Source: Fibrobacteria bacterium (GTDB taxonomy: Bacteria; Fibrobacterota; Fibrobacteria; UBA11236). From it: a stretch of 64,000 bases of DNA. The notes below the pieces were generated by a model that was not told the DNA's origin, did not search any database, and saw only the letters and a list, made by a program, of their open reading frames with translations. Below are positions 37,709 to 43,267 of the stretch, one piece after another. Position 1 is the first letter of the stretch; each line of letters opens with the position of its first letter. Both the position numbers and the translations under genes were made by a program. Location: the NCBI GenBank assembly GCA_025360005.1, contig JANYDA010000008.1:124001-188000 (forward strand), written 5' to 3'.

Positions 37709-39064
37709 ATGTCCGAAACCTTATTGCGTCGTCTCTCCCTGTGTGCGCTGTTATGCATGGGGATGAGCCTTGCGTCCCCGCGGGACGTGCAAAGCCCAGT
37801 CCCGGCGGTGCAAAGCACTGCGGGGCCGGCTGTGGAAGACACGGGCGCACAAAGTGGGAATGCCCAAAGCACCGACCCACATGCCCAGCCGCAGCTCCCG
37901 GCCCGCGCAGCGGAAATTCCCACCGATGAAGATCCCGGTTCCAGCGATGGGCCGGCGGCCATCCTGGAGTTGTCGGATTCGATCTTGGTCGCGCATGCGT
38001 GGGAAACCTTGTTCCCGGACTCGGCGGCGCCCGGAGGCGAGTACCAGATTCTGATCCCTTCGGGCCCCATGCTTTCCAACGGAAGAGGGTTATCCAATTC
38101 GGCTTTTCTCTTGCGCAACGGCACGCAAGCCGGTCGGCTGGACCGATCCGCGTGGGAAGCCCTATCGGCCGAAGCGTCCAAGCGTGGCGAGGCGGGTTGG
38201 GCGGAGGAGGTGGAAGGCCCGGAACAGCGGGAAGTCCCCTTGCTATGGCGCGCGCTGAAATGGGACCGGGCATCCTTGCTGCGATGGACCGAGTGGCCGG
38301 CCGGTTTCGCGGCGGGCATCGGTTCTTCGATGAGCACCATCCAGGCCTCGAAACCCCAGTACCAACGGGATATCGATTTCGCCTGGACCCAGAAACCCTA
38401 CGGCCATTTTCCGATAGGGCTGGAACTGCATCGCAGCCAATTCGGCGGCGGCCTCTCGCGATTGGGTCTCACCGTGGCGGACACCGCGGGCGGCAAACAG
38501 GGCAGCGGTAAGGAACCGGATTTCTGGGGCGACGCATATTGGTGGTGGGCCGTCTCCGCGGGAGTGCCGGGCCTGCGGTACACCTTGGCTTTGGCGAACC
38601 AGCCTTTGCCGCGGTATTACTGGCTGGACCCCGCTTCGGTCGCCGCCATACGAGAACACAAACAGGGCAGGCTGGTGAGCCAATGGACCGGCCCGACCCT
38701 GCAACGCCAGGGTAACCTGTCGCATACCCTGGATGCGCGCTTGGGAATCGTCCGCTACGGCCTCCACTTCGATACGGATGCCTACCGCGTTCCCGTCCAG
38801 ACGGTGGGCCTGGACGATTTGCCCGCGCTGTTCGGCACTTGGGGCGGCGGCCTTATCATCGCTTCGGACATTCTGGCGACCCATTTCTGGTTGGATATCC
38901 CCGATCTGGCCCTCAAGCTGGGCGTTCCGCAAGCTTATCCCTCCCGATTCCGCATCGCCTTCCTCCACTTCGACATTGCCTACCGTGACACCAGGAATTT
39001 CTGCCTGGGCGTATCGGTGCGCGTGCGCGTGGAGAATCCCATTATGAATAGACCCGGAGCCTGA
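37709..39064 (+). CDS. Exported protein of envelope operon, unknown
   Basis: No family recognised. An N-terminal signal peptide (LLRRLSLCALLCMGMSLAS) is followed by a low-complexity Pro/Ala/Gln/Ser linker (about residues 25-75), then a region of alternating strands rich in Trp/Tyr (DAYWWWAVSAGVPGLRYTLAL, FDIAYRDTRNFCLGVSVRVRV) that looks like a beta-barrel or beta-sheet outer-membrane domain. It is the first gene of a four-gene run; the next starts 1 nt after its stop. It is likely the outer-membrane or periplasmic component of a complex with the channel proteins downstream. Confidence 0.7.
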   Translation: MSETLLRRLSLCALLCMGMSLASPRDVQSPVPAVQSTAGPAVEDTGAQSGNAQSTDPHAQPQLPARAAEIPTDEDPGSSDGPAAILELSDSILVAHAWETLFPDSAAPGGEYQILIPSGPMLSNGRGLSNSAFLLRNGTQAGRLDRSAWEALSAEASKRGEAGWAEEVEGPEQREVPLLWRALKWDRASLLRWTEWPAGFAAGIGSSMSTIQASKPQYQRDIDFAWTQKPYGHFPIGLELHRSQFGGGLSRLGLTVADTAGGKQGSGKEPDFWGDAYWWWAVSAGVPGLRYTLALANQPLPRYYWLDPASVAAIREHKQGRLVSQWTGPTLQRQGNLSHTLDARLGIVRYGLHFDTDAYRVPVQTVGLDDLPALFGTWGGGLIIASDILATHFWLDIPDLALKLGVPQAYPSRFRIAFLHFDIAYRDTRNFCLGVSVRVRVENPIMNRPGA

Positions 39065-39065
39065 C

Positions 39066-40193
39066 ATGAACACCACTCCCAATTTCAGATTGTCGGAAGA
39101 TCCGCTCCAGCAGGCGCGCAGGGCGCTGATACGCATCCGCAAGCTGGCGCGCAACTCCGCTTTCGTGCCCATCCCGGTGATCGCCTTGGCGGCGTGCGCC
39201 TTCTTCAAGTACGAACTCCATTGGTATTCCAACCCGTTCCTGGCCGTCATCTTCGCCATCTTCACCACGGGGCAGATCATGGCCGTGTTCCAGATGCGAC
39301 GGGTGCTGGCGGGCGTGCGCAGCACCGGCAAATCCATCATGGTGCTGGCGGAGGCGGGCGATGAACCCGATCTGCCGGTGGTGCGGGGCAAGCTATTGGA
39401 AAACGCCCCTCCCGGCCACATGCGCGATTTGCTGCTGCGCTGGATTGAGCTGGGCATGCGGGGCGAGACTACCGGATCCGAATCGCTGCTGAACAACGCT
39501 TGGGACCGGCGTGCCCACGCGGATAACAGTTCCGTTTCCCTCCATGTCTCCATGAATCGCACCACCTTGAAGCTGGGCTTCCTCGGCACGTTGTACGGAC
39601 TCATCCTCACCTTTCCGCCCATGCAGCGCGCGGTGATGGGCCTTTCCGACAGCGACGGCGAGCTGCGCTTCATCAAGGACATTTCCCTGGCTATCGATGG
39701 CGACGAGTTCGCCATCGCCGTGACGCTGGGGGCCACGGCGCTTTCCGTACTGATAGAGCTGGTGACCATCCAGATCCTGGAACGGGCCCTGGGCGGCTTC
39801 GACATGGTGAACAGCCATATCAACGATTGGAACCTGACACGCCTGCAACCCTGGGTGAAGAAGCGCTACGGCGTGGAAGCGCGCCAGCGCCAGGCGGTGG
39901 AATCGCAGGCCGTACTGGAAGCCAAGATGGCGCGCGTGCACCATGAGATGGACGCCAACCTGGGTCGCGCCCTGGAGGCCATCGCGCGCACCACCAAGCA
40001 ACTCGATCAACTGGGCATGGTGCAAGCCGCCGTGGGCCGCCGCATCGCGGAACTGGTGGAATACGAAAAGCAGTATCGCGGCTTCATCGAATCCAAGACC
40101 GCGGCGGTGGCGCCGCTACCGCCCCACAACCTGGATACGGGCCGCTTGGAGACCAGCCACATTGACAACGCTCATCTGGAAGACGGGCTGTGA
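39066..40193 (+). CDS. MotA/TolQ/ExbB-family proton channel protein
   Basis: A 375-residue inner-membrane protein with four membrane segments: FVPIPVIALAACAFF, LAVIFAIFTTGQIMAVF, and the conserved pair TTLKLGFLGTLYGLILTF and FAIAVTLGATALSVLIELVTI. The GFLGTLYGLI block matches the TolQ/ExbB signature GLLGTVxGI. A long C-terminal cytoplasmic helix follows (VEARQRQAVESQAVLEAKMARVHHEM). The large loop between TM2 and TM3 is usual for the family. With the small single-span partner encoded by the next, overlapping gene it should form a proton-driven force generator. Confidence 0.8.
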   Translation: MNTTPNFRLSEDPLQQARRALIRIRKLARNSAFVPIPVIALAACAFFKYELHWYSNPFLAVIFAIFTTGQIMAVFQMRRVLAGVRSTGKSIMVLAEAGDEPDLPVVRGKLLENAPPGHMRDLLLRWIELGMRGETTGSESLLNNAWDRRAHADNSSVSLHVSMNRTTLKLGFLGTLYGLILTFPPMQRAVMGLSDSDGELRFIKDISLAIDGDEFAIAVTLGATALSVLIELVTIQILERALGGFDMVNSHINDWNLTRLQPWVKKRYGVEARQRQAVESQAVLEAKMARVHHEMDANLGRALEAIARTTKQLDQLGMVQAAVGRRIAELVEYEKQYRGFIESKTAAVAPLPPHNLDTGRLETSHIDNAHLEDGL

Positions 40194-40744
40194 GCTTCCG
40201 GCGGGGCCGCGGAGGCGCGGCGCGCGTGGAAATGGGCGAAGCCATCTCCTTCGAGGATGTGCTCACGGTGATGACGGTGCTATTGCTTCTCCGCCTGGTC
40301 TTCATGGTACCGTTGGTGAACCTGGACAAGGCCAAGACCATTTCGGCCCGGGCGGACAAGTACTGGTCTTCGCAAGCGGACTATGTACTGAGCCATTCCG
40401 GCGATTCCGCACGCGCGCAGCCCTACCGCAACGCGTTCGGACTGGAAGGCAAGCGCGCCATGGTGAGCGAAACCGGCAGCGGTAAGAACGTTTTCCTGGA
40501 AGCCGCCACAGCGGACAGCAACCTCACCGTGCTGCGGCACGACCTGGGGGACGGCAGCTTCATCGCCATGAACGTGCAGGGACGCGGCCATGCAGTCAGC
40601 TTCCGGCGCGGCAAATTGATCTGGAGCAAGGAGGAATCCGAGTGGTTCCCGGCATCGGACAGCGTGGATTACGGGACCAGGCCGGAAAGCAAGGCCATGG
40701 AAACGCAGTTCCGGGAATGGACGAAGGGGAGACGGGGATATTGA
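40190..40744 (+). CDS. Single-span inner-membrane protein, ExbD/TolR-like partner
   Basis: A 184-residue protein with a short basic N-terminus (SFRRGRGGAARVEM), an Asp-containing lead-in and one membrane segment (VLTVMTVLLLLRLVFMVPLV), then a periplasmic domain. The layout fits ExbD/TolR/MotB stator partners. The canonical Asp within the membrane span is not clearly placed: Asp24 lies just before it (SFEDVLTVM). The periplasmic part has no OmpA-like peptidoglycan motif. The GTG start overlaps the channel gene's stop (GTGA), strongly suggesting paired expression. The family assignment rests on topology and neighbour more than on sequence. Confidence 0.6.
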   Translation: MSFRRGRGGAARVEMGEAISFEDVLTVMTVLLLLRLVFMVPLVNLDKAKTISARADKYWSSQADYVLSHSGDSARAQPYRNAFGLEGKRAMVSETGSGKNVFLEAATADSNLTVLRHDLGDGSFIAMNVQGRGHAVSFRRGKLIWSKEESEWFPASDSVDYGTRPESKAMETQFREWTKGRRGY

Positions 40745-40747
40745 TGG

Positions 40748-43267
40748 GTGGGTGGGAAGAGAAAACCGATTTCAAAAATCGAAAATTTTAAAATGAAAAT
40801 TGAAAATTGTAAGACGAAGAAAAAAAGGAGCGGCACACTAGCAGCGCTCAAAATGCGATTGGGTCTTTCCCCCAATTTGCATTTTGCAATTTTCAGTTTT
40901 CAATTTGCAATCTCTTTCCTTTTCCTGTTCTATGCATCGACGGCCTCCGCCAAAAACGGTTCGGAGCCTCTCAATCATTACGGCCTCACCGCCTTGCAGG
41001 ACACCTCAATCGGGGTGAAGCTGATGGGCCGGTTCAAGGCCAAGGGGCAGCCCGTTTTCCTTATCCATGATCCCAACCTGGGATTGATGCAGGGGGACAT
41101 CATGCGGTTCCAGGACAAGGCCGTGCTGGTGGACGCGGACGTATGGCAGACGTTGAACGATGAGGGGGCATTGGGACGCCTCAAAGTAGCGCCGGTGCTA
41201 CGGGTGCAGGCCAAGGCATCCGAGGCCATCTGGGAGACCCGCTCCAAACTGGTAACCGGCCAGCGGGAGAAAAAAGCCTACCTGCTGGGCGGGGAGCTCC
41301 TGAAAATCCTGGAGGAAACCTTCGGCGGGATCCCGTCCCGCCAGCAGATGACCATCGTGTTCGACGGCAACAGCCTTATCCTCCTGGCTCCCGATGAGTT
41401 CCTGGATCAGTTGAAATACTCCACGGTTCGTCGCGTCCCTCCGGCAGGCAAGCCCCAATTCGTGTCGCCGCCGCCGGGAAAGATATTCGCCGGATTGCCT
41501 TTCCATTGGCAAGCCTGGGCGGCCGATCCCGCGGAACCCGCCGGCATGTTGCGATACTCGCTTTTCGGCGAATTGCCGAAAGGGTTGGCATGGGATGCGG
41601 CCACGCATGCCCTGCAAGGCGCGCCGGAGGCGGATGGCGAGTGGCGTTTGACTGCTGAAGCGCGCAACGCTTCCGGGATGTTCGATACCATCGGGTTCAC
41701 TCTCAACGTGCGTCGGAACGTTCCGCCCGCATTGGCCCATCCTCCCAAGCCCGTGGCCGTGGCCGGCCAGATGTGGAATTACCGGGCGGAAGCGGTGGAT
41801 CCCGATCATGAGGGATCGCAAATACGAATCTCCGCCGTCACGCTGCCGGCCGGAATGGAATACGATTCCTTAGGGCACCAGTTCCGCTGGTATCCGAGCG
41901 ACAGCCTTTCCGGACGAAGCCTGGAATTGACGGTGCGCCTGGAAGACCAGGCCGGAGGCAGCACCGATAGCTCCTTTACCATCAAGGTGATTCCGGCCTC
42001 GGACATGCTCTGGAGCGAAGGCATCAAGCCCTCGCTGCCTTGGGACACCCTCAAGCAGGGGAAAACCTATGCCTGGGAAGCGGGCGCGTCGGCCATGGCC
42101 TGGGCGCAACAAGGCATCACCCTGGCCGGCATCTCCGGCCCCGATTCCACCACCTTCAGCGCGGGCGCCTTGGCCCTCAAGCCCATGTCCGCAGGCCTTT
42201 GCTCGCTGATCTTCGCGTTCGACGTGCAGGGCAAAAGAGTGGAGCAGACGGTAACATTGCCGGTACGTCCGGACGCCGCGCCGCGCTTCGCCAGCGAGTT
42301 GGGGGTCTGGCGGCTGCGCACGGGGGAACCTGCAAGTTACCGTCCCGTGGCCGTTGACGCGGACGGCGATCCCGTTTCCCTGGCCGCGGAAACGCAGGAC
42401 CCCAGGCTGGAATGGGAAGGGAACCGGCTGCTGCTCAATCCTGAGCTCCCGGGCACCTATGCGGCTCGCTTGATCGCCTCCGATCCGGCCGGGCATGCAT
42501 CCGCGCAATGGGTGGCCTACAAGGTGGAACCGGCCGATCGGCCCACCACCTGGTTCCTGGAGAACCGCATCCAAGGCGGCATCAGCACCTGGACCCTGGC
42601 GGCCGACTTCGGCACGGGGCGCATCGGACTATTCACCCCCAGCCTGGATCGCATCGGGGTCAAGGGCGTCAGCGGAGCCCGCTTCTGGCCTTACCTGTTC
42701 TTCGGCGGCAACTTGCTGGGCCGCGAGAACGAAAAGATCGGCCGACGCCTATGGGTGGACGCGGGCGTCACCATGCGCATGCCCGATTCCAAGGTGGCCA
42801 CCGGAGGCCTGATGGGGCGCATCCTGGGGGAATGGACCTTTCCGGGCGAGGCCTTGGGCAAGATCGAATTCGAAATGCAAGGCCACGTAAACCAGGCGAT
42901 CGTGGTGGCGGATACTTCCAACCTGCATGTCATATACGGGGACGCCATTCTGGAATTCGCGCAGAAGTTCTCCTCAGTCGTGGACGGCATCATCAAGGAA
43001 GCCACTGCCAGGGACAATATGGTCCTCTTCACGCGTTTGGAAGGCTGGAGCCGTTTGGGCGCGGGCTTCTGGGCCGGGCCGGGGCTCTGGCGGGAAGAGA
43101 TGCCCAACGATCATCGCTACTTCCAGCGCATCGGCGGCGGCCTGCGTTACCAAGCGCGGCTGGGCGATGCCATCGCGTCCAACAGCCTCCGCGCCGGCTG
43201 GGGCAGCGGCGGCGCCGGCTGGACGGTGTATTGGACGGGGCGCGTCTCGATCAACTCCCCGTTCTGA
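40748..43267 (+). CDS. Large exported protein with Ig/cadherin-like repeats and barrel-like C-terminus
   Basis: No named family for the whole protein. A hydrophobic signal (LHFAIFSFQFAISFLFLFY, then ASTASA cleavage) lies unusually far in (about residues 44-68) because an AT-rich inverted repeat encodes the first part. The middle holds Ig/cadherin-like repeats with putative calcium-type motifs (AEAVDPDHEGSQI, VAVDADGDPVSL, LPAGMEYDSLGHQFRWYPS), as in bacterial adhesin 'putative Ig' domains. The C-terminal 230 residues (WFLENRIQGGISTWTLAADF to YWTGRVSINSPF, aromatic last residue) look like an outer-membrane barrel. The start is uncertain: GTG 40748, ATG 40793 or ATG 40853. Last gene of the channel operon. 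Confidence 0.7.
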   Translation: MGGKRKPISKIENFKMKIENCKTKKKRSGTLAALKMRLGLSPNLHFAIFSFQFAISFLFLFYASTASAKNGSEPLNHYGLTALQDTSIGVKLMGRFKAKGQPVFLIHDPNLGLMQGDIMRFQDKAVLVDADVWQTLNDEGALGRLKVAPVLRVQAKASEAIWETRSKLVTGQREKKAYLLGGELLKILEETFGGIPSRQQMTIVFDGNSLILLAPDEFLDQLKYSTVRRVPPAGKPQFVSPPPGKIFAGLPFHWQAWAADPAEPAGMLRYSLFGELPKGLAWDAATHALQGAPEADGEWRLTAEARNASGMFDTIGFTLNVRRNVPPALAHPPKPVAVAGQMWNYRAEAVDPDHEGSQIRISAVTLPAGMEYDSLGHQFRWYPSDSLSGRSLELTVRLEDQAGGSTDSSFTIKVIPASDMLWSEGIKPSLPWDTLKQGKTYAWEAGASAMAWAQQGITLAGISGPDSTTFSAGALALKPMSAGLCSLIFAFDVQGKRVEQTVTLPVRPDAAPRFASELGVWRLRTGEPASYRPVAVDADGDPVSLAAETQDPRLEWEGNRLLLNPELPGTYAARLIASDPAGHASAQWVAYKVEPADRPTTWFLENRIQGGISTWTLAADFGTGRIGLFTPSLDRIGVKGVSGARFWPYLFFGGNLLGRENEKIGRRLWVDAGVTMRMPDSKVATGGLMGRILGEWTFPGEALGKIEFEMQGHVNQAIVVADTSNLHVIYGDAILEFAQKFSSVVDGIIKEATARDNMVLFTRLEGWSRLGAGFWAGPGLWREEMPNDHRYFQRIGGGLRYQARLGDAIASNSLRAGWGSGGAGWTVYWTGRVSINSPF
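40790..40906. repeat. AT-rich inverted repeat (MITE-like) in the 5' end of a gene
   Basis: A 23-nt left arm (40790-40812) and right arm (40884-40906) are inverted copies matching at 20 of 23 positions, built from AAAATTG/CAATTTT units, with 71 nt between. The surrounding 40770-40925 is far richer in A/T than flanking genes. It contributes codons for the leader of the gene at 40748. Confidence 0.7.

What the first reader, a model, noticed from the sequence alone, without database searches (positions are those of the whole stretch)
37709..43267. Four-gene envelope operon with a proton-channel pair between two large exported proteins
Seen: gaps of 1 nt, an overlap of 4 nt and 3 nt join an exported beta-rich protein, a MotA/TolQ/ExbB-like channel, a single-span ExbD-like partner and an Ig-repeat protein with a barrel-like C-terminus. 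Knowledge: ExbB/ExbD-type pairs power outer-membrane work using proton flow. Inference: this could be an energised outer-membrane machine (transport, adhesion or gliding) not yet described. Neither exported protein belongs to a family I recognise.
Basis: partly seen in the sequence, partly recalled or inferred. Interest (0 to 1): 0.6.

Follow-up and report, generated by a model that had tools for sequence, protein, structure and literature searches.

The report
Unknown proton-powered outer-membrane machine, four genes
Four adjacent genes, always inherited together in a minority of Fibrobacterota, appear to encode an inner-membrane proton motor plus two outer-membrane barrel proteins, one with a long stalk, which would make a new energy-driven machine of the bacterial envelope whose job is still unknown.

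Summary
Four abutting genes (A-B-C-D, window 37709-43267, gap 1 / overlap 4 / gap 3 nt) are real. Profiles of A, B and C each hit exactly the same 17 of 168 Fibrobacterota genomes; every one of the 20 copies is an A-B-C-D cluster, in varying surroundings. B is a distant MotA/TolQ/ExbB relative (sub-threshold Pfam matches in 14/14 members tested; hhalign 90% to the genome's own ExbB/TolQ set). It keeps both channel threonines (T175, T224) in 20/20. C has one transmembrane helix with an acid at position 22 in 19/19, but its periplasmic domain is not ExbD-like. B TM3-TM4 and the C helix are the most conserved parts of those two proteins. AlphaFold models make A a 12-stranded outer-membrane barrel with a small N-terminal domain, and D an N-terminal domain, four Ig domains and a C-terminal 12-stranded barrel. 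No curated family covers A or C; D matches only generic Ig models. The genome separately encodes MotAB-, Ton- and Agl-like motors. Best reading: a proton-driven trans-envelope machine parallel to Ton, Tol, Agl-Glt and Por-Gld, probably for accessory outer-membrane transport. The motor reading is well supported by sequence, the architecture by models, and the cargo or function is unknown.

The parts
37709..39064 (+). Gene A: exported protein, signal peptide + small alpha/beta domain + 12-stranded outer-membrane beta-barrel
   Evidence: AlphaFold2 model mean pLDDT 78, pTM 0.60, 12 strands; Foldseek hits are outer-membrane barrels/porins; no Pfam/NCBIfam/PADLOC/PHROG match
37952..38296 (+). A, N-terminal alpha/beta domain (residues 82-196), presumed periplasmic
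   Evidence: model; periplasmic location inferred
38303..39037 (+). A, predicted 12-stranded barrel (residues 199-443)
39066..40193 (+). Gene B: MotA/TolQ/ExbB-superfamily wheel subunit, four TM segments + cytoplasmic coiled-coil-like tail
   Evidence: Pfam PF01618 matched by 14/14 members sub-threshold, best 2.4e-4; hhalign 90.3% to own-genome ExbB/TolQ/AglR set; hydropathy
39561..39617 (+). B TM3 with invariant T175 (39588-39590), equivalent of ExbB T148
   Evidence: 20/20 Thr; hhalign register GFLGTL vs GLTGTV; ExbB role from PMC6677748
39714..39770 (+). B TM4 with invariant T220, T224 (39735-39737; equivalent of ExbB T181), S227 and E231
   Evidence: 20/20 each; hhalign register
40190..40744 (+). 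Gene C: putative axle subunit, one TM helix + small periplasmic beta domain
   Evidence: found in exactly the same 17 genomes as B
40250..40324 (+). C TM helix with conserved acid E22 (40253-40255; 18 Glu + 1 Asp of 19) and invariant D46 just after it
   Evidence: resembles ExbD TM helices more than most TM-like segments tested
40445..40678 (+). C periplasmic six-stranded antiparallel beta domain (residues 86-163), followed by a C-terminal helix
   Evidence: pLDDT mostly above 85 in this stretch; not recognised by ExbD profiles
40748..43267 (+). Gene D: exported stalk-and-barrel protein
   Evidence: homologues along the whole protein in the same 17 genomes plus one contig-edge copy in G061
40961..41461 (+). 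D N-terminal domain (residues 72-238), the most conserved part of D; presumed periplasmic, motor-facing
   Evidence: 2.74 bits per column vs 2.19 for the barrel; location inferred
41462..42529 (+). D, four Ig/cadherin-like domains (residues 239-594); one is missing in several relatives (spacer-like)
42548..43255 (+). D, predicted C-terminal 12-stranded barrel (residues 601-836)
40778..40911 (.). Inverted-repeat element inside the 5' end of D; its right arm encodes the signal-peptide core LHFAIFSFQFAIS

Best explanation
A-B-C-D encode one proton-motive-force-driven trans-envelope machine. B (a ring, presumably five copies) and C (an axle, presumably two copies) form a MotAB/ExbBD-type proton motor in the inner membrane. 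Protons pass between B TM3/TM4 (T175, T224) and the acid E22 of the C helix. C's periplasmic domain contacts the conserved N-terminal domain of D. D's Ig domains form a stalk across the periplasm, and D's C-terminal barrel anchors it in the outer membrane next to the second barrel, A. Motion of C, passed through D, drives opening of or transport through the A/D barrels, most likely for accessory, substrate-specific outer-membrane transport. Shown by sequence: gene order, obligate co-occurrence, B's membership of the superfamily, conserved channel residues. Predicted by model: the two barrels, the Ig stalk, the C fold. Inferred: 5:2 stoichiometry, C-D contact, periplasmic position of the stalk, transport as the output.
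For: A, B and C profiles hit exactly the same 17 of 168 genomes and D the same 17 plus a contig-edge copy. All 20 copies keep the order A-B-C-D (position of A in L024) in unrelated surroundings: PfkB/rhomboid, sugar epimerase, MetW, SHMT/dehydroquinase, NfeD. Divergence of the four proteins is tightly correlated, r 0.945-0.975. B: PF01618 in 14/14 members, hhalign 90.3% with ExbB/TolQ paralogues in the correct register. The trio reported for ExbBD and TolQR (two Thr + one Asp) has counterparts in all members as two Thr + an acid. B TM3-TM4 (3.43 bits) and the C helix (3.32 bits) are the most conserved regions of B and C. A and D model as 12-stranded barrels; Foldseek hits for A are porins and other barrels. 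D's N-terminal domain is its most conserved part and Ig number varies. For transport: patchy presence even within a genus, and divergent second copies in three genomes.
Against: B is below Pfam's gathering score and C has no ExbD profile match. The conserved C acid is E22, one residue before the position that lines up best with ExbD Asp, which varies (D/E/S/N). A's Foldseek matches are weak and generic (best E 2.6e-4, TM-scores low). The C-D model has pTM 0.40, was run as a read-through fusion, and 8 alignment columns in C were contaminated by D rows. No substrate, partner or phenotype is known, and no recurrent neighbour gene hints at cargo.
Confidence: 0.6

Rival explanations
1. The machine moves or presents surface adhesins (gliding-type or adhesion): D's Ig domains are outside the cell, pushed out autotransporter-fashion, and the B-C motor moves them.
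For: Ig/cadherin-like domains are common in adhesins and dominate the Foldseek list. A passenger before a C-terminal 12-stranded barrel is the type Va autotransporter layout.
Against: The N-terminal part of D, which would be the exposed tip, is its most conserved part. Only about 7 residues separate the last Ig strand from the first barrel strand in the model, with no helix to thread the pore. No autotransporter profile matched. The genome has separate AglRQS-like sets with one ExbB and two ExbD genes.
Confidence: 0.15
2. A Tol-Pal-like system that holds or constricts the outer membrane.
For: A motor plus outer-membrane anchors with a periplasm-spanning stalk would fit mechanically.
Against: Present in only 17 of 168 genomes, missing from near-complete genomes of genus g2 that has it in two others, and duplicated in three genomes; a core envelope function would be nearly universal. 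No TolA, TolB or Pal counterpart in the cluster.
Confidence: 0.1
3. B-C is an ion channel or sensor that does not do mechanical work; A and D are a separate porin/adhesin pair that merely sits in the operon.
For: C lacks the ExbD periplasmic fold; no direct evidence of B-C to D contact.
Against: Strict co-occurrence and order in 20/20 loci with matched divergence argue for one complex.
Confidence: 0.1
4. The module is a highly diverged copy of an already known system (Agl-Glt or PorLM/GldLM) that profile searches fail to recognise.
For: Agl-Glt homologues have been reported in Fibrobacteres (PMC3169522), and GldM also has a multi-domain beta-rich periplasmic part (own knowledge).
Against: AglR matches PF01618 at 4.4e-18 (PMC3169522), B at 0.15. 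The genome has separate, clear AglRQS-like sets, and A-D profiles find nothing around them. No TonB/GltG-like gene is in the cluster.
Confidence: 0.05

Closest known systems
ExbB-ExbD (Ton) and TolQ-TolR proton motors (PF01618 / PF02472)
   Same: Polytopic B subunit with two channel-lining helices carrying the equivalent threonines; single-helix C subunit with an acid; adjacent genes in the same order
   Different: B has four TM segments and a long cytoplasmic tail and is far below the Pfam cut-off; C's periplasmic domain is a different predicted fold; no TonB, TolA, TolB or Pal partner; two dedicated outer-membrane barrels in the same operon
AglRQS-Glt gliding/spore-coat machinery (Myxococcus, reported also in Fibrobacteres)
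   Same: Proton motor linked to outer-membrane barrel proteins
   Different: One axle gene, not two; no GltG/GltJ-like TonB-type protein; own AglRQS-like sets exist elsewhere in the genome
GldL-GldM / PorL-PorM (type IX secretion, gliding)
   Same: Motor coupled to a chain of beta-rich periplasmic domains
   Different: Here the Ig chain is carried by an outer-membrane barrel protein (D), not by the axle subunit
Flagellar MotA-MotB
   Same: B has MotA-like four-TM topology with a large cytoplasmic loop between TM2 and TM3
   Different: No MotA profile similarity (hhalign 2%, with only two MotA sequences in that profile); no peptidoglycan-binding domain recognised on C
Type Va autotransporters
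   Same: D: exported region followed by a predicted C-terminal 12-stranded barrel
   Different: No profile match, no linker helix, conserved N-terminus

Membership tests
MotA/TolQ/ExbB superfamily (B) | Match to PF01618 at the curated cut-off (22.9 bits) | tested here: not met
   12.3 bits, E 0.15 for B; 14/14 members match at E below 1, best 2.4e-4
MotA/TolQ/ExbB superfamily (B) | Profile-profile similarity over the channel helices | tested here: met
   hhalign 90.3%, 123 columns, correct register
MotA/TolQ/ExbB superfamily (B) | Two channel threonines (ExbB T148/T181) | tested here: met
   T175 and T224 in 20/20; roles from PMC6677748 and PMC12965293
MotA/TolQ/ExbB superfamily (B) | Pentameric ring around a dimeric axle | not testable with these tools
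   No complex prediction available
ExbD/TolR (C) | Match to ExbD/TolR profiles | tested here: not met
   No Pfam ExbD match in any of 14 members; hhalign 4.9% to own-genome ExbD set
ExbD/TolR (C) | One N-terminal TM helix with a conserved acid | tested here: met
   E/D at position 22 in 19/19; helix resembles ExbD helices. Aligns one residue before the ExbD Asp position
ExbD/TolR (C) | ExbD-type periplasmic alpha/beta domain | tested here: inconclusive
   Model shows six antiparallel strands and a C-terminal helix, unlike the ExbD fold as recalled; not compared by program because Foldseek on the fused model returned only Ig folds
Outer-membrane beta-barrel (A) | Signal peptide and closed even-stranded barrel | tested here: met
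   12 strands in the model; Foldseek hits to porins and other barrels; closure not measured
Outer-membrane beta-barrel (D) | Signal peptide and C-terminal even-stranded barrel | tested here: inconclusive
   12 strands in the model, but the Foldseek list is dominated by Ig folds, so the barrel has no independent match
Type Va autotransporter (D) | Autotransporter profile and pore-spanning linker helix | tested here: not met
   No profile match; no helix between Ig4 and the barrel
Ton / Tol-Pal system | TonB, TolA, TolB or Pal component | tested here: not met
   None among the four genes
Agl-Glt | AglR-level PF01618 match, two ExbD-like axle genes, GltG/GltJ partners | tested here: not met
Zorya ZorAB | PADLOC ZorA/ZorB profile | tested here: not met
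   No match

The most novel reading that the evidence does not exclude
A separate class of proton-powered trans-envelope machine, on a par with Ton, Tol, Agl-Glt and Por-Gld: a diverged 5:2-type motor whose axle hands force to an outer-membrane-anchored Ig stalk (D) and a second barrel (A), diversified by whole-module duplication within Fibrobacterota.
Probability: 0.5. Interest if true: 0.75.

Novelty: new variant of a known kind. Interest (0 to 1): 0.6.

Why it matters
Only a handful of ways are known by which bacteria bring energy to the outer membrane. A compact module that holds the motor, the stalk and both outer-membrane barrels in four adjacent genes would be an unusually simple case: force transmission from proton flow to an outer-membrane protein could be studied with four gene products. 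It would also widen the MotA/TolQ/ExbB superfamily with an axle subunit that has a different periplasmic domain, and give Fibrobacterota a testable envelope function.

Tried and rejected
Flagellar MotAB, Ton/Tol, Agl-Glt, Zorya and autotransporter membership: rejected or not met (see membership test). PDB profile searches with the 14-sequence alignments gave only coiled-coil or chance matches for B, C and A. Single-sequence search of all GTDB contigs found only Fibrobacterota relatives; plasmids and viral contigs gave none. Profile search of other phyla was not possible, so restriction to Fibrobacterota is not proven. Weaker D-profile matches (D profile positions about 170-470) in many genomes are generic Ig repeats of larger proteins, not the module. 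Promoter/terminator scan was uninformative. A and D barrels are not detectably related to each other. Flanking genes gave no functional clue. Several attempts at a cleaner fusion alignment of C and D failed; the best one (A10) was used. Literature searches found no description of the module in open-access papers.
Full report
What is there. Four genes on the + strand, A 37709-39064, B 39066-40193, C 40190-40744 and D 40748-43267, are joined by a 1-nt gap, a 4-nt overlap and a 3-nt gap. They lie between a divergent pfkB-family kinase gene and a convergent rhomboid gene. The genome is a Fibrobacterota assembly: contigs carrying the closest relatives are labelled Fibrobacteres/Fibrobacteria.

The module is real and indivisible in the sample. 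Independent profile searches of 168 Fibrobacterota genomes with A, B and C hit exactly the same 17 genomes. D is found in those 17 and at one contig edge in an eighteenth, G061. There are 20 copies, because three genomes carry a second, divergent one, and all keep the order A-B-C-D. Full copies come from six families (f1, f2, f3, f4, f7, f8). The surroundings differ between families, so the unit, not the neighbourhood, is conserved. Pairwise divergence of the four proteins is strongly correlated (r 0.945-0.975), as expected for joint inheritance. Presence is patchy even within genus g2 (two of four genomes), and the module was not found in the Fibrobacter-like genus g4, which makes up much of the sample.

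B and C are most likely a proton motor. Every one of 14 B proteins tested matches the MotA/TolQ/ExbB Pfam family at E below 1 (best 2.4e-4), the window's own B below the curated cut-off. Against a profile of the genome's own ExbB/TolQ/AglR paralogues, hhalign gives 90.3% over 123 columns in the expected register, GFLGTL against GLTGTV and LGATALS against LIATAVG. The literature lists two Thr and one Asp as the proton-path residues of ExbBD and TolQR (PMC6677748, PMC12965293). The matching B threonines T175 and T224 are invariant in 20/20, and C carries an acid at position 22 of its helix in 19/19. B TM3-TM4 and the C helix are the most conserved stretches of their proteins. B has four TM segments and a long cytoplasmic tail. 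C's helix scores among the most ExbD-like of 271 TM-like segments, but the rest of C has no recognisable relation to ExbD.

A and D are outer-membrane proteins by model. A: signal peptide, small alpha/beta domain, 12 strands (mean pLDDT 78), with porins and other barrels as the Foldseek matches. D, folded together with C as one read-through chain because the two genes share a frame: N-terminal domain, four Ig-like domains, 12 C-terminal strands (mean pLDDT 77, pTM 0.40). C in the same model is a long helix, a six-stranded antiparallel sheet and a C-terminal helix. The relative placement of C and D in that model carries no information. Eight columns of C were contaminated in the alignment.

How it probably works. 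D's N-terminal domain is its most conserved part while Ig copy number varies between relatives, which fits a periplasmic stalk with a fixed contact at its lower end better than a surface adhesin. Only about 7 residues link Ig4 to the barrel, too short for an autotransporter-type linker helix. The proposed path of force is therefore proton flow, B-C rotation, D stalk, A/D barrels. Accessory presence and divergent second copies favour a substrate-specific output such as transport over a general envelope role. This last step is inference, and nothing in the neighbourhood names a substrate.

Relation to known systems. The same genome holds eleven over-threshold MotA/ExbB-family matches, among loci that include two MotAB pairs, ExbB-ExbD sets with TonB-like genes, and two AglRQS-like sets with paired ExbD genes (assignments read from the sequences, not scanned one by one). 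The module is therefore not simply this organism's Ton, Agl or flagellar motor. Homologues of Agl-Glt in Fibrobacteres were described in PMC3169522, but B is far from AglR in profile score and the A-D profiles find nothing near the AglRQS-like sets. The fair label is a new variant of the known proton-motor kind, with novel outer-membrane partners.

Limits. No complex prediction, no other-phylum profile search and no phenotype. The barrel assignments rest on AlphaFold models of modest depth (20 sequences for A, about 18 for D).

Noticed in passing
window 40778-40911; also G000 loci L085, L089, L099, L075, L081: A dispersed AT-rich inverted-repeat family (85 matches to a 23-nt arm pattern with up to 3 mismatches, against 0 for the reversed control) sits close to many genes; in D, and apparently in several other exported proteins, a repeat arm is read in frame as the hydrophobic core of the signal peptide (LHFAIFSFQFAIS, LRFSICNFQFAK and similar)..
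   Followed up: partly
L027, L028, L029 (second copies in G002, G004, G005): Divergent second A-B-C-D copies; in L027 and L028 D is followed by a lipoprotein-like gene, and the L027 one has no Pfam match.
   Followed up: partly
B residue 231 (window 39756-39758): A glutamate in the middle of TM4 is invariant in 20/20 B proteins, besides the two channel threonines.
   Followed up: no
L022, L023, L072, L073: B's cytoplasmic tail carries an internal repeat of roughly 60-70 residues in these relatives, so tail length varies between lineages.
   Followed up: no
L081 2801-5598 and L082 5467-8424: Two separate AglRQS-like sets in the same genome: one ExbB gene, two ExbD-like genes and a further gene each.
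   Followed up: partly
L024 (G012) D gene and L073 (G087) C gene: Apparent frameshifts split these genes; probably assembly errors in draft genomes.
   Followed up: no
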